A stretch of 64,000 nucleotides of DNA from Paramacrobiotus metropolitanus (taxonomy: Eukaryota > Tardigrada > Eutardigrada > Parachela > Macrobiotidae), in contig NW_026570324.1 of assembly GCF_019649055.1 (NCBI RefSeq), positions 558,001-622,000 on the forward strand, read 5' to 3'. Under the pieces are notes generated by a model. The model made no database searches. It saw only the letters and a list, made by a program, of their open reading frames with translations, and was not told the DNA's origin. The translations under genes and the position numbers were made by a program. Shown in pieces: positions 30,112-64,000 of the stretch. Each line of letters starts with the position of its first letter. Position 1 is the first letter of the stretch.

Positions 30112-33100
30112 ATGCCTGCTCCGCAGCGCTGTCAGCCCTTGGAGCAGATCTGTAAGTTTTGCGTATCGCTGTGAAGGTATTTTCAGTTTCTATCAGCCCA
30201 TGCGGAGTACTTCTTCGAGTCTCCATAAAGCTGTAGCAGTGTAGCTGCAAAGAAATCTTCACACACATGGGTCGTTGCGTAATAGTTTTGTGCGACCTGC
30301 TAATTATCTGCAAAAATCAGATGTTTTTACTTTGCTGCGCTTTCAGTTTGCGGACAGTGCCAGAAATGGACGGATCTTCCCTGTTTGTCGCACGCGCAAC
30401 GCGTACGGGACGCCAGCGTGTTGCCTTATTCGGTGGCCAGTCTTCCGCACATTCTGTATTTGGATGTACCTCAACATGGCCAGGCTGGTAAGGATGCCAA
30501 CGAAAATGATTAAATAGGAACTGCTGTTGCTGTCTATACAATAATTATAATTGCTTTTCTGATTTAATTCTGTAACTGAGTAATTTTTTCATATTTTATT
30601 CTTGTTTTCTTTCTTATAATTTTTCTTATTGAAGTGGCGTTTTCTGAAATATTTCTAGGGTTTTTTTTCCAAAATTTTGATTTTTAAAACTTCTGTGGAA
30701 AATAAAGCAAAAGAAGGGAACGCAGAAAATAATCCATTTTATGTTTAACAGGATAAGTACTCGCAATCTATTGTAAGCAAAACTCAATAAACATGTCTTC
30801 TCTGCAAAGTTGCAAACTGCTAAAGTATTTATTTATATATCACTCAAAATTATCGTATGTTCCAAGCATACCATTGTTTTAATTTAAATGATTAAATAGT
30901 GTTTAAAAGAATACTTTTTAATGTTCTTTTTCTATATATCAAAATTTCAAAAAAACTTTTCTGTGCGAAATTGTGAAAAATTTTGTATTCTTATATTTTG
31001 ACAGACAAGGCGGTTTTTGCCAAAGAAGCAGTTCTGCCTCTGACAGTTTTCGGCCCGTTAATCGGTGTGCGCAGTAAAAAGGAGCCAGCGGATGTTGCCT
31101 TCGCCTGCGGAAATGCAACGAGAAAGGGATTGCATTATTTCCATCTGGAATCCGATGAGACGACCAACTGGATGAAATACGTCCGATTTGCACAATCTCC
31201 GGAGGAGCAAAATTTAGCTGCGTACGAAGTACGGAAAATAATTAGCAAATTACTATAATAATTAAAGCTTTGGTGAATTATCGGCGAATCACGAGGACGG
31301 ATTGGGAAAAGCAGATGGTGCTGCCTTTTTCTTTTGCTTCGTAGACATTTCAACTCTTGACGTTTTCTGATTACCATTGCACTTTCAACGAAATTTTATT
31401 AGTTTTATTCAGTATTTTTAATTCGCAAATTTGATCGCATTGGTTTTATTCTTAAATTTTCTTTAATTTAAATTTTCTTTAAATATAACGCTTCAATTAA
31501 AGATTGAAGAGCCTATCGTTAGAATCGGATTTCAGAATTGAAAATTCTGAAAAATAACAAAACGATGTGATAATAAAATTCTGAAATATCAAAATTACTA
31601 TCCAGAATATTTCTGATGATTTTCTCTTTGTTGGCCTAGTAAAGCATAATTTAGAAAAAAACATTTTCTGCCTCATATCTGTAGTTGAGTTTTCGAAGTA
31701 CAACAAATTTTCCAATATACTCGTATTTTTGATGATACCACTTCGTGTAAGCACTTCCGTATTTGAATTATAAAAATTATTGCGCCTCAAAACTCATTAT
31801 TTTGGCCTGATTACCGGGAAAACACGTCGCAGAATGAAGGAATTTCACTGGAAAAATAATTGTATTAGGTACACGAAGCGTCTCCATTACTCCCCGCTCC
31901 CGCCGTTTCCCCGACGCGAACGCATGTGATATTTGTTTCAACGAAAACGATCCAGCCGGGCGATGAACTGAAGGTGGCCTACTCCCTGGTTTATTCCCAG
32001 GCATACGGTGGTCCCGATGCTCCCAAGGCCCAACCTACAAGGAAGAATCACGCGGCAGCTAGTCAGACTGTTGAACACGATAATCCGAACGCTTCTTCCA
32101 CTGGGAAGGGCCTCGTTAGACCAGAGATCAATCCCAGCGTCGAGCCGAACGCTCCGACCGACACCATCATCCCACCGCGTCCGGTGACGACCGTCAAACG
32201 TCTGCGTTTCACCTATAAGCGCAATACACCGCGGCCGAAACCGGTCCCGAACGGTGCATCCGTGAAAGATAAGGAAAATGATACCGGTCAGGTGGCCATA
32301 GAGGCGAGGCCGAAAAAGCGCCGAAAACTCACGGACGATTCCATGGAGATGCCCAGTTTCTTGCTGCCCAATTTCTTGCCGCCTGATGAAGAGGATCCCG
32401 TTGTGAATATGCCGGCGAATGCGGAGGTTAGTGCGTATGGAATCGCTGCTGTCGCAGTGCCGGACGTTGCGGTTGAACCGGAAGTTGCCGTTGGTGTGGG
32501 GGATTTTTATGATGCCGGGAACGATAGCTTAGGTAAAAAACCGGACATTTTTTCTTTTCCAAAATCTCCAACCAGACGTTGGATGTGGAGAGATAACTCA
32601 GATAAGATGGCGGAATTGCATAAATACAGTGTACGCTCACAATCTTGGGCATCCTGACTAGGGTACATAGCCCAGGGCATAGCCTAGGGTGCATCCTGAC
32701 TAGGGCCGGTACATAGCCCTAAATCCGGTATATAGCGCTTAATCTGTACTTTAAGTACACATCCACGGGATCCTGAGCTGTTGCGGCCCTTCCAGACACT
32801 TTTTGCATTGTTTTACAACATTCTGTGGCCAGATAATTTGTGTACATAGGCGTGAACTGTGTTTGCGCGCGCAACTTCCGGTTGCCGAGTTCTGAGGGTT
32901 GTGAATGAGGATCTCATTATTTACCAGTCTTTTTCAAATTTTCTCCATAACTGCACATACACAACTACACATAAAAAATTTTGAAATTTTGAAAAAAATT
33001 GGTGGAGCTCAAATCCGTATGAAAACAATATTCATAGTATAACGCGGGGCCATATGGGCGCCACGCGTATCCTCGACAGCGAACAGCGTGAACCCGGATG

Positions 33101-36100
33101 AGGCTTTATTGCCGAATCTAATGCGCACCGTGGCGCAGCAACACCAAAACTAATGAGGAAGGATCCTGCAGCCAGTGCAACTGTGCTGCAGGTCCGTCAA
33201 AACAGCGCAGCAATGTGCGGGGTGGAAATCCCCAGAAACAGCGAATAGCTACTCAGGAGGGCGGGGCGTCCCGCCCTTACACCCCTTTTGCAGGCATCGC
33301 TACGTCCTCGGAGCGAAATCTCCCAGGATTCGGAGGATCCGCACCCCCGCCGGTTCGGCTCATGTTGGGTTCCGGGTCAGTTCGGTCCGGTTCGGGCGGT
33401 TAATCCGGTCGGCTCGGTTCCAGTTTGGTCGGCTCAAATCCGGTTCGGCTCAGGTTGGGTTCCGGGTCAGGTCGGCTCCGGTTCGGTCCGAGTCAACCGT
33501 CTGGGTCAACGCACTGTCGCGCCAGATCCAGGGTCCAACCCGGAAACGGGTGAATTCCGTAGTTTCTTCAGCAAGGGAAAGGTCACGTTCTGGGGAAATT
33601 TGGGCAGGGGTTTGGGGTCTATGTGGCCCGTGACCCCTGCAAAAAAACAAAGCACGCAAATCCGCGGTGAAATCCACTGCTCCGTCCGGGGGGATGTCGC
33701 CGTCTCAGGAAGTTCGGGCAGTGTTTTGGTGGGGGAATTCTTCGGCGTGGTGCTGGTGGTCGATCCGTGCCGTTGGGATCGGAGTTGGTGCTGCTGTTGG
33801 CGGTGTATTCGTTCTGGTTTCCCGCTGGTCCGGGTCGCGTTCGCCGTCGGCATCGCAGGAGGCAATTCTCGCTCCACGGCATCGCAGGAGGCGTTTCTCG
33901 CTCCGCGGCATCTCCGTCCAGTTTGGGAGGCATCCGTCGCGGGGAGGCGTCCATCTCCGTCAGTTGGGAGAGGAATCCATCACGTTCCGCGGGAATGGGG
34001 GGCATTTGTAGCTCCACACATGGGGGTTAAATTGGCTCAAATAATCAGAGGAGCCGTGCGCGCGGGCAGCGCGCACGGCCTGGCTCGAAACCGCGATCTG
34101 CGACCATATAACGCGGGGCCATATGGGCGCCACGCGTATCCTCGACAGCGAACAGCGTGAACCCGGATGAGGCTTTATTGCCGAATCTAATGCGCACCGT
34201 GGCGCAGCAACACCAAAACTAATGAGGAAGGATCCTGCAGCCAGTGCAACTGTGCTGCAGGTCCGTCAAAACAGCGCAGCAATGTGCGGGGTGGAAATCC
34301 CCAGAAACAGCGAATAGCTACTCAGGAGGGCGGGGCGTCCCGCCCTTACAATAGTTATGTGGTTTTACAAGTAAATTTGAAGAAAATTGGTTAATATTGA
34401 GATCTGAAGCACCTGAAGAATTTTAACCTATCTGAGATTTTGCTACTCTCATATTTTGCCAACCGGAAGTGGAATGCGCATCCACATGCATTTCGCGCCT
34501 GTGTATACAAATCATTTGGCTACAGAAGGTTACAAAGCATTGCAAAACGTGGCTGAATCTGCGCAAAAGCGGTTAGTTTGTTAGCCTGTACATCAGTCCG
34601 TTATTTCGTTTTTCAGGGGGAGAAACATCAACGTCTGAACCCAGAGTGACAGTTCCACAAGATGATAATGGTGAATCGACCCAACCGACGGAACCCGTCG
34701 AGCAGAAACGTGTCGCCGATGTGTCTGAGGTACTGATAAAACAAATGGACAGTCTGAAATCGAAAGCCCATCTTAAACTCCGGAACAGCGGAGTGTGTTT
34801 GGTGTGCGGCAAACACATGAAGAATCTGCCGGAGCATCTGGAGAACATGCACACCGACGCGGATGTTCAAGCGGTGGATGATGCGTGCTTCATCTGCCAC
34901 AGGAAGTTCAAAAATCGCTCGTCGCTGACTCATCATTTCAATATTGTAAGCACATACGTAAAAACAAAATAAAATCATCAACAGATAAATGAATTAAATA
35001 CAAAATAAAAAAATTTGTGTAAATTACGTGGTATCTGTTCGTTGGTTAAAATGGCGAACATTGGCAGGTTCACCGCGTAGTGACGACCGTGCCCGATGAA
35101 GCCAGTCAAGCGGCCGCTCTGGAATTTATGCGCCGAACGGGATTCTTGAATTACTGTTGCTCCAAATGCCGGCAAACGTTTCCCAGTAAAAAGCTGCTGG
35201 ATTTGCACAGCTTTAAGCATAATAAGGACCACACGGATCAGCATCAGCGCCGGTGCTCCGAATGCCCGTTCGAAGCGGCGAAATTCGCCGATCTCGTCAA
35301 GCACACCTCCAAGCACGCTTTATCACGCAAGCTCCAGCGATTTCCCTGCTTGCTGTGCGGTGCCGAAATTGGCAACTCCATCCGCGAGCACATGGAAATC
35401 CACCACCCGGAAGCCTTTAAACTGATCAAGGAAGCCTGGAAATTCCAGTGTCCGGAGTGTCGGCAGACGTTTCCTGGGAATACCAATCTCAACAACCATG
35501 TGTCCATTCAGCACAAAGGCTGGCAGTGTGTGTACTGCGGGCAGCGTGGCGCCCGGGGGTGGCTGGTCTTCGACCAGCACGTCCGGACCCATAAGATCGA
35601 GAAATCGTTTCCCTGTCTGGTTTGTGATAAATCGTTCAAGAAATACCATCGACTATGCATTCATCTCCGAGATTCTCATCAAACCGAGTCCGTGCAGCAT
35701 CCGGACATGGTGGCGGTGGCGGACACCGCGGCATCGGCGCTTCCTCCCGTGATGGTGGAACGCGCCATCGAGCACATGCGTGACACGCAGCAATTCTCCT
35801 GCTATTGCTGGAAATGTAAGCAGTCTTTTGCGAGCTTTGAGCTGCTCGATCTGCACGCATTCCGGTATTTGGATTCTGAGGACCCGCAAGACGATCCGCG
35901 TCGGGAGTGTCCCGCCTGCCCGTTCCACGCGGCGAGTTTTGCGGAGTTGGTGCAGCACACCTCGCAGCATCGTCTGCGCAAGCTCGACCGGCGGCCGTGT
36001 CTGATTTGCGGGACGAGTGTGAAACATGTGCGCGCGCATATCCAGCAACATCATCCCGACGTGATGCAGCGCATCACGGAGACCTTCGAGCACCCGTGTC

Positions 36101-36891
36101 CGGAGTGTGGAGACCGGTTTCGGAGTCGCGGGGCGCTGGAGTTCCACACCAAGGTGAAACATAAGGGCTACCAGTGCTGGTACTGCGCCAAGGTGTTCCG
36201 GGCGTCAAACCTGTTGGGCAGTCACGTGGTGGAGCACAGCGTCAACGGGGAGTATCCCTGCCCCGCGTGTGACAAGATCCTACCGAATTATCCACAGATC
36301 AACGTTCATTATCAGGCGTGCCACGATGCGACGCGGCTGAAGACGTGCAGTGTGTGTCAGGCAACGTTTTTCGGGGAAGACAAACTGGACCAGCATATGG
36401 CCGCCAGCCACAGCAATGCGGACGAACGGGAAGTGAGCAAAACAGCGCGCTGTGGACGGCCGCTTGGTGCTAAACCAACTCGCGCGTGTGATTTTTGTGG
36501 GAAATCTTTTAAAAGTTATCAAGCCATGTATTACCATCGCCTCACGGTGCATTTGGGGAAGAAGCCGAAATACGCCCTGAAAGTGCGCGTGCAATGCGAT
36601 CGGTGCGGCAAGATGTTTTCTTGTAAAGAAACTTTGCATAATCACGTGCAGTGGGTGCATATGGACGGTGGCAAGAAGAAGCTCGCGTATCAAAAGGTGC
36701 GGGCGGAAAGGATAGCGGCCGGTCTGCCCGCCGATCCGATGTGCAACTATGTCCGGCCGCGGAATCGGACGGCCTTCGAGGATTTCAAGTATAAATGCGA
36801 GGAATGCCAGCTGGGATACACCTGGCAGATCTCCCTGACGAAGCACAACGAATCCCGGCATCCCGAGAAGATCCTGCAACAGCCGAAGTAG
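30112..36891 (+). CDS. PRDM-type PR/SET zinc-finger protein, copy P1, complete
   Basis: A probable nuclear DNA-binding regulator and possible lysine methyltransferase. Exons 30112-30151, 30347-30487, 31005-31228, 31869-32532, 34617-34945 and 35068-36891 sum to 3222 nt, 1073 aa. Residues 15-29 form a zinc knuckle C-x2-C-x7-C-x2-H (CGQCQKWTDLPCLSH), followed by SVASLPHILYLDVPQHG. The PR domain shows AKEAVLPLTVFGPLIGV, ETTNWMKYVRFAQ and EEQNLAAYE, then THVIFVSTKTIQPGDELKVA and a conserved Tyr (KVAYS). A ~15-residue insert sits at the exon 3/4 border. Then come a basic patch (PKKRRKL, possible nuclear signal), an acidic linker and about 18 C2H2 fingers. Fingers of the first half of the last exon repeat as a second module (both have ELLDLH/KLLDLH, CPF.A..FA.LV.HTS.H and HHP). 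The layout matches PRDM4/9/10/15 types; no KRAB is present. The intron found in P3 and P5 between linker exons is absent here. Confidence 0.9.
33038..34350 (+). mobile_element. TRIM-like element with identical 244-bp direct terminal repeats
   Basis: Terminal repeats 33038-33281 and 34107-34350 appear identical by eye, starting TATAACGCGGGGCC and ending CGTCCCGCCCTTACA. The element is flanked by the 4-bp duplication ATAG (33034-33037 and 34351-34354). It lies in the intron of P1 between exons 4 and 5. The inner 825 bp is GC-rich with repeats of GGTTCGGCTCA-GTTGGGTTCCGG and GCATCGCAGGAGGC units. I see no gag or pol, no convincing primer-binding site and no polypurine tract. Each repeat ends with a GGGCGGGGC/GTCCCGCCC hairpin. 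Identical repeats imply a young insertion. The solo copy at 26463 supports the LTR ends and the 4-bp duplication. Confidence 0.85.
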
Positions 36892-38540: not shown

Positions 38541-41500
38541 ATGCCTCCTCCGACGCGCTGCGTACCCTTGGATTTAATTTGTACGTTTTATGTTAAATTA
38601 TGTAGAATATTCGGTTAACAGGTACTTTCTATTTAGCATATTCCCCTCCGTGAAGCTCCGGTAAAACTAATTAAACATAATTATTAAGACGTACGCCCTA
38701 TATCACTGAACTTGAACGTTGAATAATTGTTACTATGTTTTATGTACAGTACTGTGCTTTTCAGAGACACATTTATTCGCTTAAAGCCAAAGGGCAACGC
38801 AATGGAATTCTTACGCAATGGTTTTGTTCAGATGTTCAGAAAAGGTTGAATTTTAAGTTTTCAAAAATAATTTACCGGCTAATTTAAGGAAGTGACCATT
38901 AGCTAAAATCAAAGAGGTTTAGAACCTATGTAAAATTTTCGAAATCCAGTACCCGGCGTATGTATGGTACCCCATGTTTTTCCAGTCTATGTGCTTGAGA
39001 ATGCGTAGTCGAACCAGGCGATGGGTACAATTATAAGCAATTCAACCTGGAAGATTTTCTACCGTATGCTTTCTGTACCTAGGTCCATGAGACATCTCCA
39101 TTGGTGTCCGATCCGGATTCTGCTTCCCCCACACGAACTCACGTGGCATTTGTTACAACGAAAACGATTCTGCCGGGTGATGAACTGAAGGTGGCCTACT
39201 CCCTGGTTTATTTTCAAAGTCTCGGCTGCCGTCGTTGGTCGCAGGTGCAAAAGGCAGGCGATAATGTAACGGCAGCCAGCCATATTGGTACGTACCAATA
39301 CTAATCATATACTAATCATAATCAAGATCCTTCCTCTACGTGGGAAAACCATGTGGCACCAGACCTTTCAACCAGTGTACTGTGCCGTACAACAACGCCC
39401 ACCATTAACAATTCGCCGATCTTTAATATGGTCTACTTGATGCAAAATCATCGTGAACCGGAGTTTAAATCGACCCAGGCCGGTGCACCGTTTCCAGAAA
39501 ACAAGCACAATCATAGCGGTCGGGTGTCCACCAACTCGGGTATGCGAAGGGTTTCTATTCTGAACAGAATTGCGGGTGACCAATCATAAAATATTTTGTT
39601 ACCTAAAGATTTCGTAATAGATACGTATCTCTATATGTCTGATTACTCTGTATATCCAGTGCTTACAAACTCCGTTGACCGGCCGGTTTGGTCACCTTTC
39701 ATTAATTACCATTTCGCTCTGCCATATAATTATGTGATTATATTTCAGTTAGGGTGATTTTTCGAAGCGAATCTACGTGCTCTTCCTCGCGAGCCGGTTT
39801 CTTAAACCGCACATGCATATGGCCACTAGAGATGGGCATCGGATAAGAATATCCGATTTTGTCCTATCCGAATCCGAATTTCGGATAGAATAAAAGATAA
39901 TTATACGAAATGTTATAAGAATAAGAATAATTTGCCGTAGCACTCGGATAGGGTCGGATAAATGACAGCGTGTCCCAACTTTATACCAATAAAATCATTT
40001 AAATTGTTAATTTTGCGCATTTTCACATTGTTTTTAAAATTCGGATAGGATTAGGATAAAAAAATGTTACCCGATGCCAGTCTCGAACAGCCACGTCTTG
40101 CGGTTTAGCAGCCGTACGGTAACTAGTTCCCCTTTGAAATTGAGACCTACCTATTGTATCTCGCAGGTGCAAATGCGCGAAAGCGCAGAAAGTTATCCAT
40201 CCCCATCCGTCCGGATCCTTGCCGTCCGATGAAGATCCTGCTGAGAATTTGTCAGGCGATATAGCGGCTGTTAACGCGCATGGGATAGATGCTGCCGAAA
40301 CGGCAGCCGGTTCGGTTGAACCGGAAGTTAATAGCGATGAAGTGGTTTTCGATGACATGGGAAACGATAACACAGGTGAGAGACGGTTTTTTTCGCTGTG
40401 AATGAGTTCGAATCTGCGATCTGTTATATTAGACGAAGAAATTGCGGAACCCAACGCGCTGGTCGCGCCAGATGACAGTTCCGGCGAAGCCTCCGATGGA
40501 GCGATACTGAAAATGAACAGGTTAAAATCACGAGCCCACCTCGAGCTGCGGAAAACTGGAGCATGTTTGGTGTGCGGCGAACATGCCCGTCCATCTGGAC
40601 TCGATGCACACCGACGAGGACATCCGAGCTGTGGATGATGCGTGTTTCTTCTGTCATCGGAAGTTCGCAAATCGCTCCTCATTTCGCACTCATTTTAGAC
40701 GGGTAAGCACATAAACAGATTGCAACTTTTGTTGCTCAAAATTAGATTTTGGAAAGGCTAACTTTTGCAGGTCCATTCCGCAGCAGCGGCTTGGCCCGAT
40801 GAAGCCAGTCAAGCTGTGGCTGTGGAATTCATGCGTCAAACAGGGTTCCTAAATTACCGTTGCACCAAATGCTGCAAAACGTTACCCAGTAAAACGCTCC
40901 TGGATGTGCACAGTTTTATGCATGGTAACTCTGCTGATACTGTCACTGATCAGCATGAAGAACAGTGTTCAGAATGCCCTTTTGTGACGGCAAGTTTCGC
41001 CGAACTGGTCAAACACACATCGGAGCACGCTGTGTCGTTCCGGACAGAAGGACATTTCTGTCTTCTGTGCGGTGCCGCGTTAGGAAACTGGGCCCGTCAC
41101 CACATGGAAAGCCACCACCGGAAGCGTTGAAACTGATCATGGAAGGATGGCAGTTCCAGTGTCCGGAGTGTCGGCAGAAATTCGGACAGAATTCCCATCT
41201 CAACACCCATGTGTGGATACAGCACAAACTACTGTGCCAAGATAATCCGTACAGTCAGACTGCTTAGCTGTCATGTCGTGGAGCACAAGGTTAACGGGGG
41301 ATATCCTTGTCCGGCATGTGATAAGATCTTGCCCAGTTATGCACGAGTCAATGTTCATTATCAGGCGTGCCGTGAAACGCTGCGCTCGAAGGCGCGCAGT
41401 ATGCGCCAGATAAATTGTTGTGGTGAAGACAAGCTGGACGCGCATATGGCGACGTTGGACAGTAGTGCAAACCAAACAAATGGAGCGACGAGGAGCAGAA

Positions 41501-41550
41501 CACTGCGTCATGCATCGACAAACAACACTTTAACAAAGGGTATATGATCG
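38541..41550 (+). pseudogene. PRDM-type gene copy P2, without knuckle and first PR exons
   Basis: Exon 1 (38541-38580, 40 nt like all copies; RCVPLDLI) has a GTACG donor. The zinc-knuckle exon and first PR exon are absent. The second PR exon is at 39083 (HETSPLVS, then THVAFVTTKTILPGDELKVA). Its linker is broken after AASHIG, where a short insert brings stops near 39301. Linker material resumes at 39353-39585. A further exon at 40167-40375 is frameshifted before LPSDEDPAENLSGDIAAVNA. The finger exon 40433-40702 loses frame near 40585, and the last exon from 40771 loses it near 41125. It then jumps across a deletion to the CHVVEHKVNGGYPCPACDK finger at about 41270 and peters out by 41550. Inactive beyond reasonable doubt. 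Confidence 0.9.
39827..40086. mobile_element. hAT-like miniature element in P2
   Basis: The left end TAGAGATGGGCATCGGATAA and the reverse complement of the right end (TCGAGACTGGCATCGGGTAA) are imperfect inverted repeats. Flanks ATGGCCAC and ACAGCCAC agree at 6 of 8 positions, as for an old 8-bp duplication. TAGAGATGGGCA-type ends are common in hAT elements. The 260-bp element contains repeated ATCCGAT/TCGGATA motifs and no coding sequence. Confidence 0.6.
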
Positions 41551-43924
41551 TGGCTTGCGTTTGGGAAAGAGGAGGAAAAATGCCAGCGAGAGTGAGCATG
41601 AAGTCTCTGCGTCACGATGTATGCCGATCAATGAAGCTGGAAGAAGCACATGCGCCGGGTGCGTACCGGCAGCGCCAAAGAGAAGTTAACCAGAGATCAC
41701 GCGGACAAGGTAGCGGCCGGTCTTCCCGCCAATACGGTCAGCCGTCAAGCAGCAGTCAATAATTCTTGGCGGGCGTGCGATTAGTTCTGCGAAATCTTTG
41801 TACTAATTTTCTGTTTGACATAGAAAATGACTGGATTTTTTGCGCTACAGAGTATATGTAATGAGGTGGTTCTGAAAAATGCCTCCGGATTTGCCTAGAT
41901 TGAGGAATTTGATGATATGCAGTAATAACTGGTAGCAACGCGCAATGCTGGGAGTGATGCTTCGTGTCGCCCCAAAAATCTATGATTGCAAATTCGCAGG
42001 TACAGTGTCGGATAAAGGTCATTACTCAGTTTAAGAGGGTTTATGGAACTATTGATTCGCTTCACAAGAGCGCGCCGCAGCAGTGTGCACGAAACAAGTG
42101 CAGCGACGGGAAGCACAACGTGTCGATTTAAGACCGGAAACGACTGCAGTTTCTGTATCCCGCGTCGACCTTTTTAATGTCGTTTTAAACCGTTCTTACG
42201 TGTACAGATATTTAGGAAACTGCGTCTAGAAAACCTGAACTACATTTTAAATTATTATTGTTCTGTGTGACGTAACCGCAGTGTCTTTTGTATGCACTGA
42301 AAAAAGTACATTACGTATCTGTTTTAGGTGCAGAAGAAAACGTTCTTGCAAATTTGCATTACGGTATACTTAAAAATCTCGTTGAAAAATTTGTCAATGG
42401 TGAGAACCAACACTGAAAATAAAAGCCTACATCGCACGCCCGAAATCAGTTACATGCATGTACCCAAGAACTTACTGTACTATAGCTAGAATGACTGGGA
42501 ACGGACTCCGCAACAGTCGACTACGTCATCACTGTCGCATACAGAAAGCGCTGCTGTGCTAATCCTTACCATCGTCCCACAGACTGTGTAGTCTCGTTTA
42601 GAAGATATTCTGAAGTTTCTTTCTCATAAAAGGCTCTCTGAGATTTTATTAGATCATATTAAATATTAAAATCCCAATTTCGGGGGGTGGAAATAGAAAT
42701 CTGCTGAGAAAACTGACAAAAACCGTAAAAAACGCGCATCTGTCACCATGGCAGCCGCCCTCCTGTGTATGCGAGAGTGATAACGTCAAACGGTTGGTTA
42801 CCAGTCCTTCTCACACTATAATAAGTACTTGATGTACCACCAGGCAAATTAAAATGCCGCGCAACCAGACGTTTCTATGTTTGAGCCCCGGGCTGACCAC
42901 CGGCTGTCTGCTGTCGTCCGTCCGTCATGATTTGTGTTTATCAGTTCAAGTTGATATCTTACCTGCTTGTAATTTGGCTTTTATAGCAGTACATAAACCA
43001 AGTATCAAAGATTGTGAGATAGGATATAGGTGAAAGAACAACGGCTTCGACTTGTATGGGAAAAGAAAGAAAGAGTCTGCAAATGTAAAATTAATGTACT
43101 TACTTAATACATGTGCACAGTGTATAGGTAATCGACCCCGTGCAATATCTATATGACTGCAACAAACTGCCGGTACCCGAGCCGTAAGTATGTAACTGCA
43201 CATTCTTATATAAGGGACTAAATCTGCGGCCTGCCCCTGCTATGTATGTGATGGCCACTCATCACGTTAATGTAGCAGCATAGTAGTTATAAGAGGAAAC
43301 GAAAAACAAACTTAAAGCAGAAACATTAATTTTCATCTATGTTTTCCAAGTCGCCGGAAGAGCTTTTTCGACCCTGATTGGCCGGCAGACTACTGTGCTG
43401 CCCATACGATCCACAATGCCAATCGGGCCTTCTTCTCCCGGCCATTGCATACAGCTTATATCAAACACAGCCACAGGTACATGGTGCGAAATCCACGGAA
43501 CTTTCCGAAAACAGCGTCTGTACGTACGCCGTACTTGTACGGTACTACCACCGCAACTCAAAGAGGAGGTACATACCCTGCCGGTTTTTATTCGTAGCTA
43601 TCGTAGATTGTGCACATGCACTTTGGATCTGAATATTGGATTTTGAGTCTGACAATAATCTTTCTAGCCTTGCTGAAGTTCGGGACTGCTTTTCCGCCAC
43701 CGACTGTTCCGACGATATCAGCTATGGTCCAGCTTTCCTTTAGCATGATGGATATTATTGCGCTCTCGGCCCGTATCGGCCGTGACTGTGGCGGATACGA
43801 AGAGTATCGAGTCTATCGACTATCGAGCGTGTACTAACTTAATTTAGTGTACTAACTTCATTGCGGACTGCATGGCACTGCGGGGACAGAACAAGAGCTT
43901 ATCCTGACAGCACTTTCCACAGTC
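41551..43924. other. spacer between P2 and P3 and P3 upstream region
   Basis: No supported gene at 41551-43336. The segment 43337-43920 is the 5' flank of P3 and has relatives before P2 (about 37990-38300), before P4 (about 50080-50200 and 52170-52337) and, inverted, at 48905-49210. Landmark sequences are GCATACAGCTTATATCAAAC, ATCCACGGAACTTTC and CACATGCACTTTGGATCTGA. Conservation across copies suggests promoter or leader function, or simply recent duplication. Confidence 0.55.
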
Positions 43925-49210: not shown

Positions 49211-50204
49211 TCTTCGATGCAACGTGTGTTCTTGTTTTCGTTTCTTGTTGTAACTACTCTGCTATTGAATGCTAGGCAAAGCATTACCGTCAACCGCTGC
49301 TCAGCCCAGGATTTGAACAGAGAAGAGTCTGGGTTGTGCGGTATTTCATTTTTTTGGTGATACTGAATATTATTACTGAAACTCGGTTCCGGTGTCCACT
49401 TAGTGTCGGTTCGTTACTCCTTACCGTTGACAATTTTTTAATGTGATGTATGTACATTGTAAATCTATATAAGTAACGTAAGTAACGAAATATTAAGTGA
49501 TTTATATGATCAGTGATTTATATAAGTGATTTTTTCAGGTAAGGAAAACTTGCACAAACTATTCTTTCTGTATACACAACACACTCTTTCAACGGTCTTA
49601 AAAAGCACAGCACTTATGACACAGGTGGTCGAACATTATTTACCCGTACAGATAACATTATTTTGACCTAGCTCTGCCGACACTGGCACTTTTAGTACCC
49701 CTTGAAATTTGCACTAACATGCATTTGCACTAAATGCCGTTGATGTTGTAGTATAAGTTACTCAGTAATCTGTAAACGTAAGAGCGGTTAATAGGCCAAA
49801 CCGGAAAAGTTCGACGGATGCCGAGAGCGTGACCAACCTTCTCGCGGGGAGGCGGTTAGAGCACACAAAAAAGATCCACAGGCAGCATACGCTGCCTTCT
49901 CGCTCAGACATATGGCTGAGCCGTTGCACAGATCCACGTAAGGCAGATAGTTTTTACGCGTCAGCCAACGACGTTGGGTTACGGTGCCTTACGTCGCGAA
50001 CGGACGTAAATCAACCCGTAACGCCAACTTCTACCCGAACGTCGAACTAGACGGAACTTGTTTTGTGAAATCTAAAATTCGCTATTGGTAGCTGTCGTAC
50101 GTAGATAAGCACATGCACTTGGGTCTGAATTTTGGATTTTGTATCTGACACTGACTGTAATCTTGCTAGCAGTTCTGGGCTACTTCTCCGGACCCGATTA
50201 TTTC
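49211..50204. other. spacer with PRDM P4 upstream remnant
   Basis: No gene. The segment 50064-50204 (ATCTAAAATTCGCTATTGG, CACATGCACTTGGGTCTGA, ATCTTGCTAGCAGTTCTGGG) parallels 43590-43690 upstream of P3. It is cut off at about 50205 by a retroelement. Confidence 0.55.
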
Positions 50205-52337: not shown

Positions 52338-55300
52338 ATGACTGCTCTACCGCGCTGTGAAACCTTGGAGCTAATTTGTAAGTTTGTAGATTTATACATG
52401 TACTGTACTTATTATTTCGCTTATTCATCTCCGTGATGCTCTGCTAAAAAAATTCAAAAGTTCTTTGCTGCGTCCATATCTCGGATATTTACTTTGAAGT
52501 CTCGATTATCTATCTCGAACTATAATTATTATTATCTTTGGCTTTTTCTCTTTTCCCCGCAAAATTTGCAGAATGTCGGTCGATAATAGGACTGCTTGCA
52601 CCTTCTTGTATTCAAACGTTTTGAAATAGTATCGTATCGTTCAAACCTGTTCAAATCGTATTTCCACGCACAACAATGGAACCGTCCAACCGCATGTTGC
52701 ATGCACAAGCGATTTTACGTCAGTCTGTGTTATTTTACGCACACATCCCCATGTCGCAAAAAAATTGTCATAATACATGTATAATGCAAAAAAAGTTATA
52801 GGGTGCGCGAAAAAGCGTATACATATGAACGGTGGAGGCTGAACAACGTTATGAGCCAGCTAACCGAGGCCGGCAACGGCATTCTTAGTAGCAGTTCACT
52901 CGCTGTTTTTCGTAATGCACTGAAGCATGTTATCATTACTTGATTGCCTTCCTTTTCTTAATCCTTCTCTTGTATTAATGGGTTTTGCTCTAATTTCATT
53001 ATGATGCCTGTTATTTAGCCAGGTTTAAATTCCCAGCTAGATTTCGATCCTAGCCTTTAATGGGTTACCTGCCTGCCGTATAATAAACAATAAACAATAT
53101 GCGCACAAGCGGGAATACCAATTGCAACTCCCCTCATGCCTTTAAACACTCGTTCAAAAAGAACTGCTGTGCCGGCTTCTAGGCCGTTCGTTTGAACTTT
53201 GAACTCACGCTTAAAATTCGGCGCGCAGAGGCGCATTGCATTGTAAATTATTAAATATGTCAGGCCAAAAAAAATAAATAAAAAAAATCAGTTAATAATA
53301 AATAAATCGTATAGTTCGCCTACGTATAGTTTCTATGACATGTTTGTAATTGTTCCTCAACCACTGACTAACCTAACAAGTACGGAAAACTCGTAGGGCA
53401 GTACATTTTTTCTTCCTATAAAATTAATATTTTGATTAAATTAATCTTCCTTGATTGCTGCATCTGATTGGGCTTATAAATATTGCCCCTGAATGGCAAA
53501 TTTCCCGCCGTTCAGTATGGAGGGTGGCTGCGGGACCTGAGTCTGGTAGACTGGGGTTCGCCAGAGGCTGTGTGGTGGCAGCTGTCCCGCAGACATCCAG
53601 CGACCACCAACGAAGACCCAGTAAGTTTCTCGCACGCTGTTTCGTTCTCATTGCTTCCTGGACACGGACTGCCGCTTTTTCTTTCATTTTATTCTCATGG
53701 CGACAAGCGGCCAGTCTCAGCTACGACGAAAGAAGGATGGTTCTTTGGACATGCGGTTCAAAGCCTCCAAGGACCACGTCGCCAGTCAAGATGGGCAGAA
53801 CGCTCCCAAACAACCTCCACCTGTGACTTGCCTTCAGGAACTGCTAACGGGACCACGTGTGAAGATCTCTGCTAGGATTCCCAAAGCAGCCAAGCACCTT
53901 TGTACGGCGGAATTTTTGAAGAGAGTCCGTCGCTGTGTGCAGCAGAATGATGTGGCGTCCTGGTCCGCAGTGCTTAGTTTTTCTAGGTTCGCCCTGGCAT
54001 TGCCCGAGTCGAAAGCTCTTCGGAAGGAATCTCTGAGCAGTATTGTCAAAAAGAATTTCCATGCGATGGAAGAGGGCAATACAGATACCGACCGCCCCAG
54101 TCGTCGTTCAACTCGCAAAGCGCCACAGGGAAACAAGGGAAAGAGAATGGATGACACAGAGCAGCTTCGTTAACGCGTGGCTCAGATGTTTCAAAATGGG
54201 CGGACTAAGGATATTGTGAAATTTCTTTCCTCCGAAGAAACCATAGCGGAGATGAATGATGAAACCGTAGCTGCATTAAGAGATAAGCATCCCCAGCGGT
54301 CGATCGATGAGATTTTTCCCACTCTTGCCCCAGTGCCACCAGCAGTACCGCGTGTTTCTCCTACTGAGTTACTGGACGCCGTTTTTAATATGCCTGCTGG
54401 CTCTGCGGGAGGGTTCACGGGAATGAAGCCGCAGCACTTAAAAGACTTGTTGAATCGCCGGGACGATGTGGAAAGTGAGCTGTGTCTGGCGATGACGAGT
54501 CTAATGGACATTGTACTCAATGGCAAAGTTCCAACTGAAGTGCGACCATTTTTGTTTGGTGCTAATTTAATCCCTTTAAAAAAACCTACGGGAGGAATCC
54601 GCCCCATCGCAGTTGGTGAGGTGTTACGCAGAGTAGCTTCGAAAATTGTTAGCGCAAGGTGTCAGGAACAATTAGGTGCACTATTCCGCCCCATTCAACT
54701 GGGATATGGCACGAAAGGAGGCGCGGAGGCTGTTGTACATGCAGCGCGAACTTACTTGGAAACTGACCACGGAGGAACGCGTGTGATGGTCAAACTTGAC
54801 TTCAAAAACGCCTTCAATATGATCAGTAGAAGCGCAGTGTTGGAAGCAGTGCAGTCGATCATACCAGTGTATCATCCCTACTTCGACCAGTCTTACGTAC
54901 CCGTGTCCCATCTGGCCTGTCAGGATACCGTCATTGCTTCGGAAAGCGGCGTACAGCAGGGCGATCCAGGAGGACCGTTAGCATACTGCCTGGGGACATT
55001 TCCATTGCTACGCAAGTTAATAAGCCAGTTTAAAGCCGGCTTTTTGGATGACGTAACTCTGGCGGGACTGATTGAAGAAGTAATGGCAGATATCCGAACA
55101 ATAGAGGAAGAAGGGAGAAAGATTGGCCTTATGCTAAACTACAGTAAATGTGAAGCTTTCTTCTTCGACGGAAATGAAGAAGAGCGAGCGGCCGCCAAGC
55201 ATCGTTTGGTTTGGGAATGGCCAGATTTTGAGATTTTGGAGAGCGAAAACCTAACGCTATTGGGAGCACCTGTCAACGTGATCGCAGTGCCATCCTTTTT

Positions 55301-57480
55301 GAAAAATAAAATTCAACTGATAGAGAAACTAGTGAAAAGACTAAAACTGCTGCCATCCCAACAAGTTCTGTATCTGCTCCGAAACTGTCTCAGCGTGCCA
55401 AAATTAATGCATACCCTAACGCAGCAGCCAGTGCTACGAACATCCCTTGGTTCTGCGTTAATTCGACGACTTAATGCGGGGTGCGGTTACCTCCATTGTC
55501 AATGCCCATATCGATGACAAGAATTGGATACAGATGACTCTTCCGGTCGGCCGGGGAGGCCTGGGAATGCGGCGAGCAGAGGTGCTAGCTTTATCGGCGT
55601 TTATCGCCTCAGCGTCCTCGGTTTTGCCAGTGTGCCTGGAAATGCTCCCAGTCGACCGAATATCGGGTCTGGATCAGGCTACGGACAAGTGGGTTAGGAC
55701 GTATCAGTGCGAATTGCCCTCCGAAAATTTAAGGAAATACCAGAAAAGCTGGGATTGGCCAGTCGTGGAACGTGCATACTCGCAGCTACGCCTACAAGCA
55801 ATGGCCAGTGGTAAGCCGCAGGAAATGGCAGCACTATTAGCGGCGTCTGAGAAAGAATCTGCGGCATGGTTGCACGCGCTACCGGCAGCATGCTTGGGAA
55901 CGGTGGTGAATGACGAACAAGTTCTAATTGCAATCGGATTACGATTTGGTTTGCCGGTAGTGGCACCGCATGAATGCGCAGGATGTGGCTTTCAGGTAAC
56001 TCCCGATGGCCATCATGGATTATCCTGCCTGTACAGCAAAGGTCGATGGAGCCAACACACAGAACTGAACAATATACTGGAACGAGGATGCGTAGCAGCG
56101 GGCTTTCCCTGCGAGTTGGAGCCCGTAGGGTTATCCAGGGACAATGGAAAGCGTCCAGACGGATTGACCTTGGTGCCGGTTCGAGAGGGAAAGCAGCTGG
56201 TATGGGACGCCACCTTTGCGGGCACGTTAGCACAGTCGTACCTTAAACGGTCTGCAAAGGCAGCGGGCGCAGCGGCACACCAAGCAGAATGCCGGAAACG
56301 ATACAATTATCGAGATCTGGGCGATCAGTTCTGGTTTTACCCTTTGCTGTAGAAACGCTCGGAGTGCTCGGCGAAGGAGCCAGAGAAATGGTCAGCTTTT
56401 TTGGTCGGAAAATCAAGGAGAGATCCGGAGAAGGCAGATCCACGGCGTTTTTAAAGCAGCGCATTAGCCTTGCAATTATTAAAGGCAATGCGGCCGCGGT
56501 TTTAGGAACTTTGCCGGGAAAGAATAAAGTTGTTGACAATTGTGATTTTGGTTGTTTCTTTAATTCTTGATTGTGCAGTAATGGCTGTAGTGGAATGATT
56601 GACTGTTATGTCGCAGTATAAATCGGTATTAAAGAATAAGCTCGTAAAAAATAAATAAATCAGTTAATCAAAAATAAATCAGTTAATTCGGTTATCTGGT
56701 GTTTCAGGCGGAGAAATGCCGGTTTTACCGATCGAAAGTTGCCGATCGACGCCAGCGATTGAACCTGTCGATGATAAACGGCCAGTCAACGCGGCAGATA
56801 CAGTGATGGAGAGAATGAACCGTTTAAAAATCGAAAGCCCACCTTCGGTTGCGGACAAGTGGAGTTTGTCTGGTGTGCGGGAAACGAGCGCGGAATATGG
56901 CCGACCATCTGGAGACGATGCACACCGATGAGGATATTCAAGCTCTGGATGATGTATGCTTCTTCTGCCAAAGGAAGTTTGAAAGTCGGTCGCTGTTGCT
57001 TCAGCACCTCAGAATAGTAGGTACACGGACACCTGCATTTTTTATAGTTTCCGGTATGCTATGAACCGGTTTTGCAGGTTCATAACGAAACGTCTGTCGT
57101 GCCCGATAAAGCCAGTCAAGCGGCCGCTATGGATTTTATGTGCCAGACCGGATTTCTCAACTACCGTTGTTCCATATGTCCAGGCGTGTTTCCGAACGAA
57201 ACGCTCCTGAATAAGCATAGCTTTGAGCATAATCCGGACCACCGGAATCAACATCAACGCAAATGCTCAGAATGCCCGTTTGCGGCGAGGAGTTTTGCCG
57301 ACCTGCTCAAGCAATCGCAGCACGCTTTGTGGCACAGCAGCATGGCACACACGCAACAGCATCCGTGTCGGCCATCTGTGTCCGTGTCCGAAATTTTTTT
57401 ATCATCATTGCCGGGACACAGCAAATTATTGATCGTGGGTATACCGTATGAACGCATAATCATTATAATCAACCTCCGCA
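52338..57480 (+). pseudogene. PRDM-type gene copy P4: exon 1 and finger-exon relics around a retroelement
   Basis: Exon 1 survives at 52338-52377 (RCETLELI, same 40-nt length, GTAAGT donor). Its flank (CTTATTTCGCTTAT-ATCTC) matches intron 1 of P3. Zinc-knuckle, PR and linker exons are missing. DNA at about 53160-53240 (GGCTTCTAGGCCGTTCGTTTGAA) matches the last intron of P3, so a deletion joined intron 1 to that intron. After retroelement R-2, the finger exon resumes at 56708 (MPVLPIESCRSTPAIEPVDD). A one-base gain in an A-run near 56825 then shifts the frame; the original frame returns as CLVCGKRARNMADHLETMH up to about 57016. The last exon begins at 57078 (DKASQAAAMDFMCQTGFLNY) and decays after CSECPF near 57320. 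It ends against a MITE at 57491, with nothing homologous beyond. Inactive. Confidence 0.87.
53300..56646 (+). mobile_element. near full-length RLE-type non-LTR retrotransposon, copy R-2
   Basis: Longest copy in the window. An open frame from ATG 53697 runs 158 codons (basic, with EFLKRVRRCVQQNDVASWSA) to a TAA at 54171-54173. The same frame continues to 55517, so the stop splits one polyprotein. RT signatures: GFTGMKPQHLKDLL, IPLKKPTGGIRPIAVGE, VKLDFKNAFNMISRSAV, ASESGVQQGDPGGPLAYCL and FLDDVTLAG. A frameshift between 55430 and 55475 leads to VGRGGLGMRRAEVLALSAF, then CAGCGFQVTPDGHHGLSC and KRPDGLTLVPV...LVWDATFAGT. A second, near 56325, leads to FAVETLGVLGEGAR, FLKQRISLAIIKGNAAAVLG. The ends are uncertain: similar AAATAAATAA...ATCAGTTAAT stretches at 53270-53297 and 56647-56685 suggest the target duplication. 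With one stop and two frameshifts it cannot make the full protein. Confidence 0.85.
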
Positions 57481-57490
57481 ATGGTACTGT

Positions 57491-59579: not shown

Positions 59580-62500
59580 ATGCATTCTTCGCAGCGCTGC
59601 GAACCCTTGGAGCAAATTTGTAAGGTTTTGTATATAATTATCAGCTGCTTTTAAGTTTTAACTGAAACCTCACTGTTGCAGTGTAGCTAGATATTTTCGA
59701 TTCCCAAGTTTTTTTCTGAGATATATTGCAAATTTAAAATTGCTTGATTATTTTTGCAATTTGGTAATTTATTACGTACTAAAAAGCAATTTTTCGCAGT
59801 TGTGAATTACTTGGAGTTGTATTATGTAGTTGTTTTCTATCATAATACATTTATTATTTGCAAGCATAAGATATAAGATGTTTTACTTCGCTGCGTTTTT
59901 CAGTTTGCAAGCAGTGTCAGAAATGGACAGATCTTCCCTGTTTTCCCCATGCCAGACGCGTTCGAGACGCACCTGTGTTCCCGTATTCCGTGGCCAGTCT
60001 CCCGCAGATTTTGTATTTCGATGTACCTCAGCATGGCCAGGCTGGTGAGAATGGTTATTAGGCAGATTATTAATATATATCAGCGACAGGCAGATTATTA
60101 ATATATTACTAATATTGTCTGTATTGATAGTTATTAATATTTGTTTTTAAATCGAAGTAGTGTAACCTCTAAGGCTCTAACCATAGGGTTTTTTTTGCGA
60201 ATGCAAGTACCTAAAATTAAAAAAATCTGGCTTTTAAAACTTTAGAATTTGGTTTCTATTCGTTAGTCTAATATCATAAAAGCAAGATAGTAATAGAATA
60301 ACGTTAGTATAAAACTTTTATGGCATACTACATTTATTTGTATACGGTTCGAAAATACCGTACAAAGAGCGAGTACATACATGACCTCCCAAAACGGATG
60401 AGATTCCAGTGATTATTTATATTCCAACGTTGGCGAATGACCGTGCAGAATAAAACTAATTGCAGTTGTATTTGGATACATACGGGGAAATTCGATACTG
60501 CACAGAAATTTCAGTGTAAACTAGAATTTGTTGCGTGCAAAACTTTAAAGTATTTTTTGCAGATAAAGCCGTTTACGCCAGAGAAACCATTCCGCCCCTG
60601 ACAGTTTTCGGGCCATTAATCGGCGTGCTAAGTGCAAAGGAACCGGTGAATGCTGCATTTGCCTGCGGAAATGCATCCAACAGGGACTGCGTTATTTCCA
60701 GCTGGAGTCGGATCAGACGTCCAACTGGATGAAATTCGTCCGATTTGCAGAATCTCCGGCAAAGCAGAATTTAGCTGCATACGAAGTAAGAGTACAGCAA
60801 ATATTCAGTTCAGTGTTCGGCATTTTGGCTTCTGGAAATTTTCGGCAATCACGAAATTAATTTTATAGTAACAGACAGTTTTTCCGGTGTGAATTTGAAC
60901 TTCTACATGTTATTTTTACAGTTCATGTTGTAACGACAGTTTTCTCTAAATTTTGACTGAAGAGTTTACTTTGCTATTTTTTTGCGGAATACTTTACGCT
61001 TAACATTTTTGCGTTTGTCAGAAATCAAATATTACGTCTTAATTGAGATGATTCTCTATTTCATCGACTTCCCAGCTAAGTTAACAAAATATACTGAAGC
61101 TGTTTAAATATACAAAGAAATATATAAAGAATTATATATATATGTCCAGTGTTGTTTTGAAGATATTCAGTTCGTGTTCTGTAGAATGAATTTATTTGCC
61201 AAATCTTTTGGCTTCACATAGTCATGGCAAATTTTGGTCTGCTATTTGAAAACAAATGAAAGAAACTCCACAGCAGTGACTTTGTAGGTGCCAGAAGCGT
61301 CTTTACCGCTGTCAGCTCCGAATGCGGTCTCCCCTACGCAAACGCACGTGATATTCGTTACGACGAAACAAATTCCGCCGGGCGCGGAACTGAAGGTGGC
61401 CTACTCCCTGACTTATTCCCGAGCGATCGGTTGTCCCGTTTGGCAAAATGCTCCACAGACCGACTGGGAGATAGTGGATGATAATCATATCGCTCTCAGT
61501 GATAGTCCAGATTCTTCGTCCATTTTCTTCCTACTCGTGGGACCACACCTTCAGCCCAGTTTAGTGCAGTGCACTGCGACGGGCGCAAGTGACGAACCGC
61601 ATCCGGATTCGGTGCGGAACGTTAAGAAACGACGTCGAAGACATGGTGACTATAGACCGCGGTCTGCATCTGTGGAGAACGGTGTTCTCGTCACAGATAA
61701 AGAGAACCATACCGGTCCGGCGTTCATGAACTCAGGTACGGGTTGGAAACAATTTTCTGCGGTTATGGAAGTGTTGTTTCTTGTCCTATACAGTATACAG
61801 TATCAATTTTTATACTGCTCCCCCACGATGCCCTTTTAGAAATAAAGGCTTCGCCGTAAGGACACATCGTGTTTCTCCATATGTAGATTTATATGATTTA
61901 GGTAGCGCTGTGTATGAGGTTCTGAACAGAACGGTTAGCATTTCATCGGATTTGTTATGTGACGGCAAGTTGTTGATATACCACAGATGTCAGTGCGCAA
62001 AAGCGCATAAAGCGATCTGACGAATCCATGGATATGCCCAATTTCTTGCCGCCTGATGATGATCCCGTTGAGAATTTGCCAGAGGATGCGCCAGGTGTTA
62101 TTTGTGGACTGTCGGACGAACTTTCGGACGTTGCATTTGGACCGGAAGTTAGCTTGGAGTGTGGTTATGAGAGCAACCATGGAATAGGTACAGTACAATC
62201 AAACATTTTTACGTTTCGACTTTCGAATCACTCGGTATTTATAGTCCAAAATTATAGGAAGATTCTGTTGAGATTTTCTGGATTGTGGGAATACATACAG
62301 TAAATTCATTTGTTTCTGAGACTTCCGATTCTTAGCATCCGGCCAGTTCTAATAGACGCCCGCGTTTTTAGCCAAGCATTGAAACATTGAAATTATGCGG
62401 ATATTCGTGCCGCGAGAATGTTCAGAAGTCTCATTTTACAATTCAGGGTTTTGCGATCACTTGGTTGATTATTTAATTGTTCCTGTTTACAGAGGAAGAA

Positions 62501-64000
62501 AAGTGCGAACTGAAAGCGCTAAGTGACAACTATGGAGCGAGCCAGGACACCGAAGCTGCATTACAACAATGTCCCGTTAATATGTCCGACACATTGATGG
62601 AGAGAATGGACAGTTTAAAATCCAAAGCCCATCTTGGATTGCACAAAACCGGAGTGTGTTTGGTCTGCGGCGAACGAGTGGAGAATCTGCCTGACCATCT
62701 GGATACGAAGCACACCGATGAAGACATTCAAGCTGTGGATGATGCATGTTTCATCTGTTACCGGAAGTTCAAAAACCGCTCGACAGTGAGCCACCATTTC
62801 AAGCTTGTAAGCACACTGGTGCGTCGCATTTTTCCTTGTTTAGTGTTCAGATCGAAGGACCCTTGCAGGTTCACCGCGCAGCGGCGATCGTGCCCGATGC
62901 AGCCAGTCAAGCGGCCGCTCTGGAATTTATGTGCCGAACGGGATTTTTAAATTACCGCTGCTCCGAATGCCGAGTCGTGTTTCCCAGTAAGAAGCTTCTG
63001 GATGTGCACAGCTTTGAGCATAATTCAGACCACACTAATCAGCAGCAGCGCCGCTGCTCCGAATGCCCGTTTCTGGCGACTAGTTTCGCCGCTCTCGTCG
63101 ATCACACTTCGCAGCATGCTCTGCCGGCAAAACTCAAACATTATCCGTGCTTACTCTGCGGTGTCGCTGCACGGACCGGGGCACGCATATATATGTACAG
63201 AAACCATCCTGAAGCGATGAAGCTGATCACGGAAGCATGGGCGTTCCAGTGTCCGGAATGCCGGGAGAAATTCGCCGAGAATTTCGATCTGAACTCGCAC
63301 GTGTGGGCGGCTCACAAAGGTTGGCAGTGTGTGTACTGCGGATACCGTGGACCCCGGGGGTGGTTGGCTTTCGACGAACACATCACAACGCATCAGATGG
63401 ACAATTTTGTTTCCTTGCCTGGTTTGTGATAAATTCTTTGAAAAATATGACCAGCTGTGCATTCATGTCCGAGACTGTCACCAAACCGAGTCCCTAACAC
63501 ACGCGGATATGGCGGCAGTGGCCGATTCCGCTTTGGCAGTATCTCCGGCGATGGTGGAACGCGCCGTCGAACATATGCGGGAGACGCAAAAATTCTCCTG
63601 CTACTGCGTTAAATGCAGTCAGTTCTTCGCGAGCTTTGAGCTGCTCGATCTGCACACACTGGGGCACAGTGAGCCGAACGAACTGCAAGACGATCCGCGA
63701 CGTGGTTGTCCCGTCTGCTCGTTCCACGGAGCGAGTTTCGCGGAGTTGGTGCAGCACACGTCAGAGCACCGTCTAGGGAAGAGAGACTCGCGGCCCTGTC
63801 TGATCTGTGGGCAGAATGTCGTCGGCATGCGCGGTCATATCTCCGAAAAACACCCCGATGTGATGCAGCGAATCACGGGGACCTGGAAGCATCAGTGTCC
63901 GGAGTGTGGAGAGCGGTTCAGTCGTCGCGGGAAGCCAGATTTTCACACCAAGGTCAAGCATAAAGGGTTCCAGTGTTGGTGCTGCGCCAAAGTGTTTCAG
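59580..64000 (+). pseudogene. PRDM-type gene copy P5, two single-base frameshifts, runs off the window
   Basis: Exons 59580-59619, 59904-60044, 60563-60785, 61288-61735, 61987-62187, 62493-62806 and 62869 to beyond 64000. Exon 1 and the zinc knuckle (CKQCQKWTDLPCFPHA) are intact. The first PR exon is 223 nt against 224 in P1 and P3: one base is missing near 60675-60684, after ACGNAS, so the frame breaks inside the PR domain. Its remainder (NWMKFVRFAES, QNLAAYE) reads in another frame. The second PR exon keeps THVIFVTTKQIPPGAELKVA, with Ala for the usual Asp. The last exon has one extra base near 63400, before the CLVCDK finger. On either side the fingers are well kept (CSECRVVFPSKKLLDVH; CPECGERFSRRG). 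Because the rest is so clean, these may be recent mutations or base-calling errors in the assembly. Confidence 0.82.

What the first reader, a model, noticed from the sequence alone, without database searches (positions are those of the whole stretch)
30112..64000. Tandem birth-and-death cluster of a PRDM-type gene: five copies, two open
Five units in the same orientation share a 40-nt exon 1, a C-x2-C-x7-C-x2-H zinc-knuckle exon, a 223-224-nt PR exon where retained, a second PR exon and finger exons. P1 and P3 are open; P2, P4 and P5 are broken in different ways. PRDM genes are usually single-copy and conserved outside PRDM9/7, so a local expansion with rapid loss is unusual. This is my leading candidate for something undescribed.
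Basis: partly seen in the sequence, partly recalled or inferred. Interest (0 to 1): 0.85.

Follow-up and report, generated by a model that had tools for sequence, protein, structure and literature searches.

The report
Eighty-member PRDM-like gene family
The five gene copies seen in this window are the frayed edge of a family of about eighty related, apparently DNA-binding, regulator genes in one animal genome, in a gene class for which published surveys report only 2 to 19 genes per species.

Summary
In detail: five same-strand units share a 40-nt exon 1, a zinc-knuckle exon, a split PR domain and C2H2-finger exons. P1 (1073 aa) and P3 (717 aa) are open with GT-AG introns; P2, P4 and P5 are broken. 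The cluster continues past the window (P6 open, P7 broken, a P8 shard). Genome-wide, 79 readable PR domains on 10 contigs form one clade (SH-aLRT 96.3, UFBoot 100), nearest PRDM10 and then PRDM4 among six human chains; 49 lie in 0.81 Mb of one contig. Published PRDM counts are 2-19 per species. The PRDM9 tyrosines 276 and 341 are absent from every member with a residue there, so the PR domain is probably not an enzyme. Knuckle-PR is under purifying selection (dN/dS 0.20-0.23); finger contact positions change faster than the rest of the finger. Most likely role: sequence-specific DNA-binding regulators with a protein-binding PR part. A KRAB-ZNF-like role against retroelements is possible but untested. 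No expression data and no second tardigrade genome were available.

The parts
30112..30151 (+). P1 exon 1 (40 nt)
30347..30487 (+). P1 exon 2, zinc knuckle C-x2-C-x7-C-x2-H
31005..31228 (+). P1 exon 3, PR domain first part (224 nt)
   Evidence: PRDM2_PR 5.2e-14
31869..32532 (+). P1 exon 4, PR domain second part and linker
   Evidence: SET match below cut-off
34617..34945 (+). P1 exon 5, linker and two fingers
35068..36891 (+). P1 exon 6, 14 pattern-matched C2H2 fingers, an internal repeat, stop
38541..41736 (+). P2, broken: exon 1 38541-38580, PR second part from 39083, exon 4 piece 40218-40329, exon 5 piece 40511-40680, finger pieces 40756-41450 and 41701-41736; no exons 2-3; 1-nt deletion near 41118
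43925..48699 (+). P3, open 717 aa; exons 43925-43964, 44149-44298, 45643-45866, 45991-46420, 46908-47114, 47597-48699; exon 5 fused in frame to the middle of the finger exon
52338..52377 (+). P4 exon 1
53455..56570 (+). Reverse-transcriptase element (non-LTR type by eye) where P4 exons 2-4 would be; outer limits approximate
   Evidence: 54174-55514 matches RVT_1 6.2e-18; other ORFs by eye; genome copies
56687..57336 (+). P4 exon 5 (start approximate) and truncated exon 6
59580..64000 (+). P5, broken: exon 1 59580-59619, exon 2 about 59902-60043, exon 3 60563-60785 (1-nt deletion near 60680), exon 4 parts from 61288 and 62035, exon 5 to about 62805, exon 6 from about 62869 (frameshift near 63405), running past the window end

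Best explanation
Shown: this is a partly decayed cluster belonging to one large family of knuckle-PR-C2H2 genes in this genome (79 readable PR domains in one clade whose nearest tested relatives are PRDM10 and PRDM4). Neighbouring copies on the main contig are close relatives, as tandem duplication predicts. Inferred: each intact member is a nuclear regulator. Arrays built from a repeated finger block bind DNA, and the knuckle plus PR domain, which keeps the fold but lacks two of the three PRDM9 catalytic tyrosines, works as a protein-binding platform rather than a methyltransferase. Duplication, change at finger contact positions, and loss or gain of finger blocks give copies new DNA targets while the PR part is held by purifying selection. 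Copies no longer needed decay, as P2, P4, P5 and P7 show.
For: Gene models with GT-AG introns for P1, P3 and P6. Cluster beyond the window. 91 PRDM2_PR matches, 85 over the cut-off, some genes giving two; 80 blast matches with the P1 PR exon; the tool calls such counts lower bounds. One clade of 79 (96.3/100), PRDM10 as its sister (81.9/98), then the C154 gene, then PRDM4. phmmer best hit PRDM10 for P6 (4.3e-11) and for a C12 member (3.2e-17). On C17 mean tree distance of neighbours 0.77 against 1.76 for shuffled order (minimum 1.38 in 1000), 37 of 48 neighbours on the same strand. PR model pLDDT 85.5; best PDB matches PRDM4 Z 15.4, PRDM10 Z 15.2 and, tied within 1, PRDM11 Z 14.6. PRDM9 tyrosine 276 kept in 0 of 78, 341 in 0 of 67, 357 in 51 of 66 with a residue there. 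dN/dS knuckle-PR 0.20-0.23 at dS 0.69-0.77. Young C17 paralogues, 11 exon pairs: contact codons pN 0.205, pS 0.288; rest of finger 0.080, 0.311; between fingers 0.147, 0.352. The knuckle also occurs in two C17 genes and one C12 gene.
Against: No transcript or protein data; gene models rest on sequence alone. The tree uses 102 columns and six human PR chains, without PRDM15 or other animals, so the exact parent is uncertain, and many deep branches within the family have low support. PRDM9 is the second-best phmmer hit for P6 (5.7e-10). Absence of residues does not prove absence of activity, and 51 of 66 members keep the third tyrosine. The contact-position excess is modest in older pairs (66 of 112 against 103 of 224, p 0.03) and in none of 6 older pairs did contact dN/dS exceed 1 (0.19-0.55), with dS near saturation. 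The young pairs are not independent, and the rest-of-finger class holds the fixed zinc ligands.
Confidence: 0.75

Rival explanations
1. A genome-defence family analogous to KRAB-ZNF, FiNZ-ZNF or ZAD-ZNF genes: copies bind and silence retroelements and turn over with them. This is a special case of the best explanation.
For: Large clustered PR-ZNF family with contact positions changing faster than the finger scaffold. A large reverse-transcriptase element family in the same genome, 94 scored of 700 candidates, many with long open frames, with two copies in this cluster. Retroelement and ZNF numbers correlate across animals (PMC10547256, abstract).
Against: No binding, expression or silencing data. 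dN/dS below 1 in the pairs tested. The elements in the cluster may be bystanders.
Confidence: 0.25
2. Mostly neutral birth and death: the copies are drifting duplicates with little function and the open ones are recent.
For: Four of seven C104 units are broken. P3 has about half the fingers of P1, and one of its fingers lacks zinc ligands (by eye).
Against: dN/dS of knuckle-PR about 0.2 at dS 0.69-0.77; open frames would not survive random substitution at 0.10 per site; 72 of 77 family places outside C104 had a readable PR exon.
Confidence: 0.12
3. PRDM9-like function: the family directs meiotic recombination through a catalytic PR/SET domain and fast-changing fingers.
For: Same knuckle-PR-finger order and a phmmer match to PRDM9 that runs through the knuckle (5.7e-10); contact positions change faster than the finger scaffold.
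Against: Two of three catalytic tyrosines absent from every member with a residue there (criterion from passages of PMC5519329). The tree puts the family with PRDM10/4. The KRAB search found nothing, but its control rang nowhere, so it is uninformative.
Confidence: 0.06
4. Assembly artefact: uncollapsed haplotypes inflate the count.
For: Two copies sit on a small contig (C448, 21.5 kb).
Against: No pair of the 72 stretches compared reaches 98% over 500 bases; the best is 94.9% over 331 (C104 copies and five C17 copies were not in that comparison, but C104 exons are 71-85% alike to P1). 72 of the 79 lie on four long contigs.
Confidence: 0.03

Closest known systems
PRDM10 and PRDM4 (human)
   Same: Nearest PR domains in the tree and among the best by fold. 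Like both, 74 of 79 members have R where PRDM9 has N320; PRDM4 also shares L, F and Y at the three tyrosine positions. A 2013 review lists both without an activity (PMC4009873, passages).
   Different: Single genes in man; here about 80 copies, an intron inside the PR domain after the EQNLAAYE stretch in the C104/C17 branch, and a repeated finger block (the human PRDM10 finger set is recalled, not compared).
PRDM9
   Same: Knuckle, PR, finger order; phmmer alignment extends through the knuckle.
   Different: PR domain groups elsewhere; tyrosines 276 and 341 absent; many copies instead of one or a few.
KRAB-ZNF, FiNZ-ZNF and ZAD-ZNF expansions
   Same: Large C2H2 families with a shared N-terminal domain and local duplication (FiNZ and KRAB: PMC10547256 abstract; the rest recalled).
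   Different: The shared domain here is knuckle-PR. The KRAB search was uninformative; FiNZ and ZAD were not searched.

Membership tests
PRDM (PR-domain C2H2 proteins) | PR domain over the family cut-off | tested here: met
   P1 and P3 first PR exons over the PRDM2_PR cut-off; 85 genome-wide matches over it; fold of a C12 member matches PRDM structures, Z up to 15.4.
PRDM (PR-domain C2H2 proteins) | C2H2 fingers C-terminal to the PR domain in the same gene | tested here: met
   Joined models of P1, P3 and P6, finger matches in Pfam. Splicing is inferred from splice sites, not seen in RNA.
PRDM10/PRDM4 group | Position in a PR-domain tree | tested here: met
   Clade of 79 sister to PRDM10 (81.9/98), PRDM4 outside. 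PRDM15 and other species were not in the tree.
PRDM10 orthologue proper | One-to-one orthology with PRDM10 | tested here: not met
   79 co-paralogues are sister to the one PRDM10 chain. A knuckle-PR gene with classical fingers on C154 falls outside PRDM10 plus family (72.2/98), from a partial sequence, so its identity is open.
PRDM9 | Catalytic tyrosines 276, 341, 357 | tested here: not met
   Y in 0 of 78, 0 of 67 and 51 of 66 members with a residue there; criterion from passages of PMC5519329.
PRDM9 | KRAB and SSXRD domains | tested here: inconclusive
   KRAB: no match, but the search rang in no control genome. SSXRD not searched.
KRAB/FiNZ/ZAD-type defence ZNFs | Binding to and silencing of transposable elements | not testable with these tools
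   Needs binding and knockdown data.

The most novel reading that the evidence does not exclude
This animal has evolved its own counterpart of the KRAB-ZNF system from a PRDM10/4-type gene: about 80 regulators use a non-catalytic PR/knuckle as a common recruiting domain, and in some branches the DNA-binding part is built from repeated finger-block exons of matching phase that could be dropped or combined by splicing, so that target sets against retroelements change quickly.
Probability: 0.2. Interest if true: 0.9.

Novelty: new variant of a known kind. Interest (0 to 1): 0.72.

Why it matters
PRDM genes are described as a small set: 2 in a sponge to 19 in teleosts (PMC10451705 citing Vervoort 2016, passages), 2 in nematodes and 3 in arthropods in an older survey (PMC2082429, passages). 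A family of about 80 in one genome, with the PR part conserved and the finger contacts changing, would add a new shared domain to the list of large ZNF expansions. It would also be a natural test of what a PR domain does when it is not an enzyme.

Tried and rejected
PRDM9 kinship: rejected on the tree and on catalytic residues. Haplotype duplication: rejected for the 72 stretches compared. Positive selection at contact codons of the C104/C17 finger exon: not found; contact dN/dS 0.19-0.55 in 6 pairs, dS near saturation; only a faster rate of change. Assembly error as the cause of all broken frames: unlikely, since P2, P5 and P7 carry separate defects, but single indels, such as the one in P5 beside a run of T, could still be errors. 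KRAB search: uninformative, no control rang. Reading the C154 gene as the PRDM10 orthologue (my own note): not borne out, because the tree joins PRDM10 to the family rather than to C154.

Literature: ten searches of the held library. Among the titles and abstract starts listed I saw no paper on a PRDM or PR-domain expansion in tardigrades. Only (6 of 6; 9 of 9) listed every hit; the others were cut, for example 20 of 76, 10 of 42, 12 of 106 and 12 of 40. A 2026 paper on tardigrade zinc fingers (PMC12941274; abstract and passages) treats C4-type fingers, and its main text does not hold PRDM or PR domain. The main text of PMC10547256 holds neither tardigrad nor PRDM. Vervoort 2016 is not held. 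No supplementary file was read, and most subscription journals are not in the library.

Full report
What is in the window. Five units of the same gene lie head to tail on the + strand. Each starts with a 40-nt exon (30112, 38541, 43925, 52338, 59580). P1 has six exons, a 1073-aa frame and GT-AG introns throughout; P3 has six exons and 717 aa. The order is zinc knuckle, PR domain split by an intron, linker, C2H2 fingers. P1 carries two fingers in exon 5 (by eye) and 14 pattern-matched fingers in exon 6, which also holds an internal repeat. P3 is open but shortened: exon 5 runs in frame into the middle of the finger exon, and one of its fingers lacks zinc ligands (by eye). P2, P4 and P5 are broken in different ways. 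Random substitution at 0.10 per site left no stop-free frame in 300 runs for each of P1, P3 and P6; at 0.05 per site 2, 3 and 0 of 300 stayed open. The copies are 71-85% alike per exon, so the open frames are not chance.

Beyond the window. The window is C104:558001-622000 of a 169.8-Mb genome. P5 runs on past 64000. P6, outside the window, is open (1069 aa). P7 has a stop and two internal frameshifts in the fingers. An eighth place holds only three shards of the finger exon. In C104, 3 of 7 units are open.

How large the family is. The P1 PR exon finds 80 matches in the genome at E up to 0.1. The PRDM2_PR model finds 91, of which 85 pass the cut-off; some genes give two matches. The tool says its counts are lower bounds. 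I took 82 places outside C104. Two proved to be ordinary SET domains on C43 and two were broken (C17:786k and C17:870k); these four were dropped before the tree. With four C104 copies (P1, P3, P6, P7) and six human chains the tree holds 88 rows. Three genome rows fall outside the expansion: C2 beside PRDM1, C5 beside PRDM14, and C154 outside PRDM10 plus family. The other 79 form one clade (SH-aLRT 96.3, UFBoot 100), with PRDM10 as sister (81.9/98). They lie on C17 (49), C73 (10), C12 (9), C104 (4), C448 (2) and one each on C15, C26, C47, C166 and C168. Three of the 79 are truncated (L033, L066, L079), and 11 were represented by their first PR exon only. The tree has 102 columns, and many deep branches inside the family are weak.

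Origin of this cluster. The C104 copies group with C17 copies at 856-901 kb (98.3/100) and are not a clade of their own: P3 branches first (40.1/91) and P1 groups with the C17 copies (79.3/74). The simplest reading is transfer of units between the two places plus tandem duplication; the direction is not shown. On C17 the copies sit on average 16.9 kb apart over 0.81 Mb; neighbours are closer in the tree (0.77) than in any of 1000 shuffles (1.38 at least), and 37 of 48 neighbouring pairs share a strand. No pair of the 72 stretches compared looks like two haplotypes of one gene.

Other branches. In C17:1219-1278k the PR domain is in one exon and the fingers come as repeated exons, each with a block of up to four fingers (by eye). 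Of 13 such exons with a recognisable block start, 7 show a pyrimidine-rich acceptor 30 or 33 nt before the block, in phase 0; seven exon ends show a phase-0 donor; three exons show both (by eye). Such exons could be skipped without a frame change; no splicing was observed. The same finger block, without a PR match nearby, is repeated on C70. The knuckle is present in two C17 genes and one C12 gene and in the C154 gene.

What the PR domain can do. A model of a single-exon member (C12:1800205) has pLDDT 85.5 and matches PRDM4 (Z 15.4, 1.6 A, 102 residues), PRDM10 (Z 15.2, 1.5 A, 101) and PRDM11 (Z 14.6, 1.6 A, 103) best; these three are tied. The window's own split PR domain was not folded. At the three tyrosines used to judge PRDM9 activity (PMC5519329, passages) members have Y in 0 of 78, 0 of 67 and 51 of 66 cases with a residue. 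PRDM4, which a 2013 review lists without an activity (PMC4009873, passages of a table), has L, F and Y there. I infer a non-catalytic protein-binding domain; the residues alone do not prove it.

Selection. Among P1, P3 and P6, dN/dS is 0.20-0.23 for knuckle and PR, 0.43-0.48 for the linker and 0.31-0.50 for the fingers. Finger contact positions (-1, 2, 3, 6; numbering recalled) differ in 66 of 112 cases against 103 of 224 at other exposed positions (p 0.03). In young C17 paralogues, over 11 exon pairs, contact codons show pN 0.205 and pS 0.288, other finger codons 0.080 and 0.311, and codons between fingers 0.147 and 0.352. The second class contains the fixed zinc ligands and the pairs are not independent, so this shows faster change of contacts, not positive selection.

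Judgement. I rate it a new variant of a known kind: PRDM genes are known and large ZNF expansions are known, but an expansion of this size built on a PR domain was not among the papers listed in my searches (named under Tried and rejected), and it lies well above the published range of 2-19 PRDM genes per species (PMC10451705, passages). Function is inferred; expression and comparison with other tardigrades are the missing tests.

Noticed in passing
33038-34350: A small element in P1 intron 4 with 244-nt terminal direct repeats, 100% identical, with ATAG on both sides; looks like a recent miniature LTR element.
   Followed up: partly
50109-51851 and 53455-56570: Two same-strand reverse-transcriptase elements (RVT_1); the second sits where P4 exons 2-4 would be. 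The search with the second gave 94 scored matches of 700 candidates genome-wide, many with long open frames.
   Followed up: partly
28627-29229: Minus-strand fragment resembling the end of the same reverse-transcriptase elements at the left edge of the cluster (by eye).
   Followed up: no
L093:1736-7360 (C70:707736-713360): Cluster of genes with the same finger block; the PRDM2_PR search found no match on this contig.
   Followed up: partly
L092:3516-6887 (C154:226516-229887): Separate knuckle-PR gene with classical fingers, of the PRDM4/10 kind, whose exact orthology is open.
   Followed up: partly
15514-16173: Fragment of a neurotransmitter-gated ion channel gene.
   Followed up: no
22726-23616 and 25899-26471: Two F-box gene fragments about 3 kb apart that look like relatives.
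   Followed up: no
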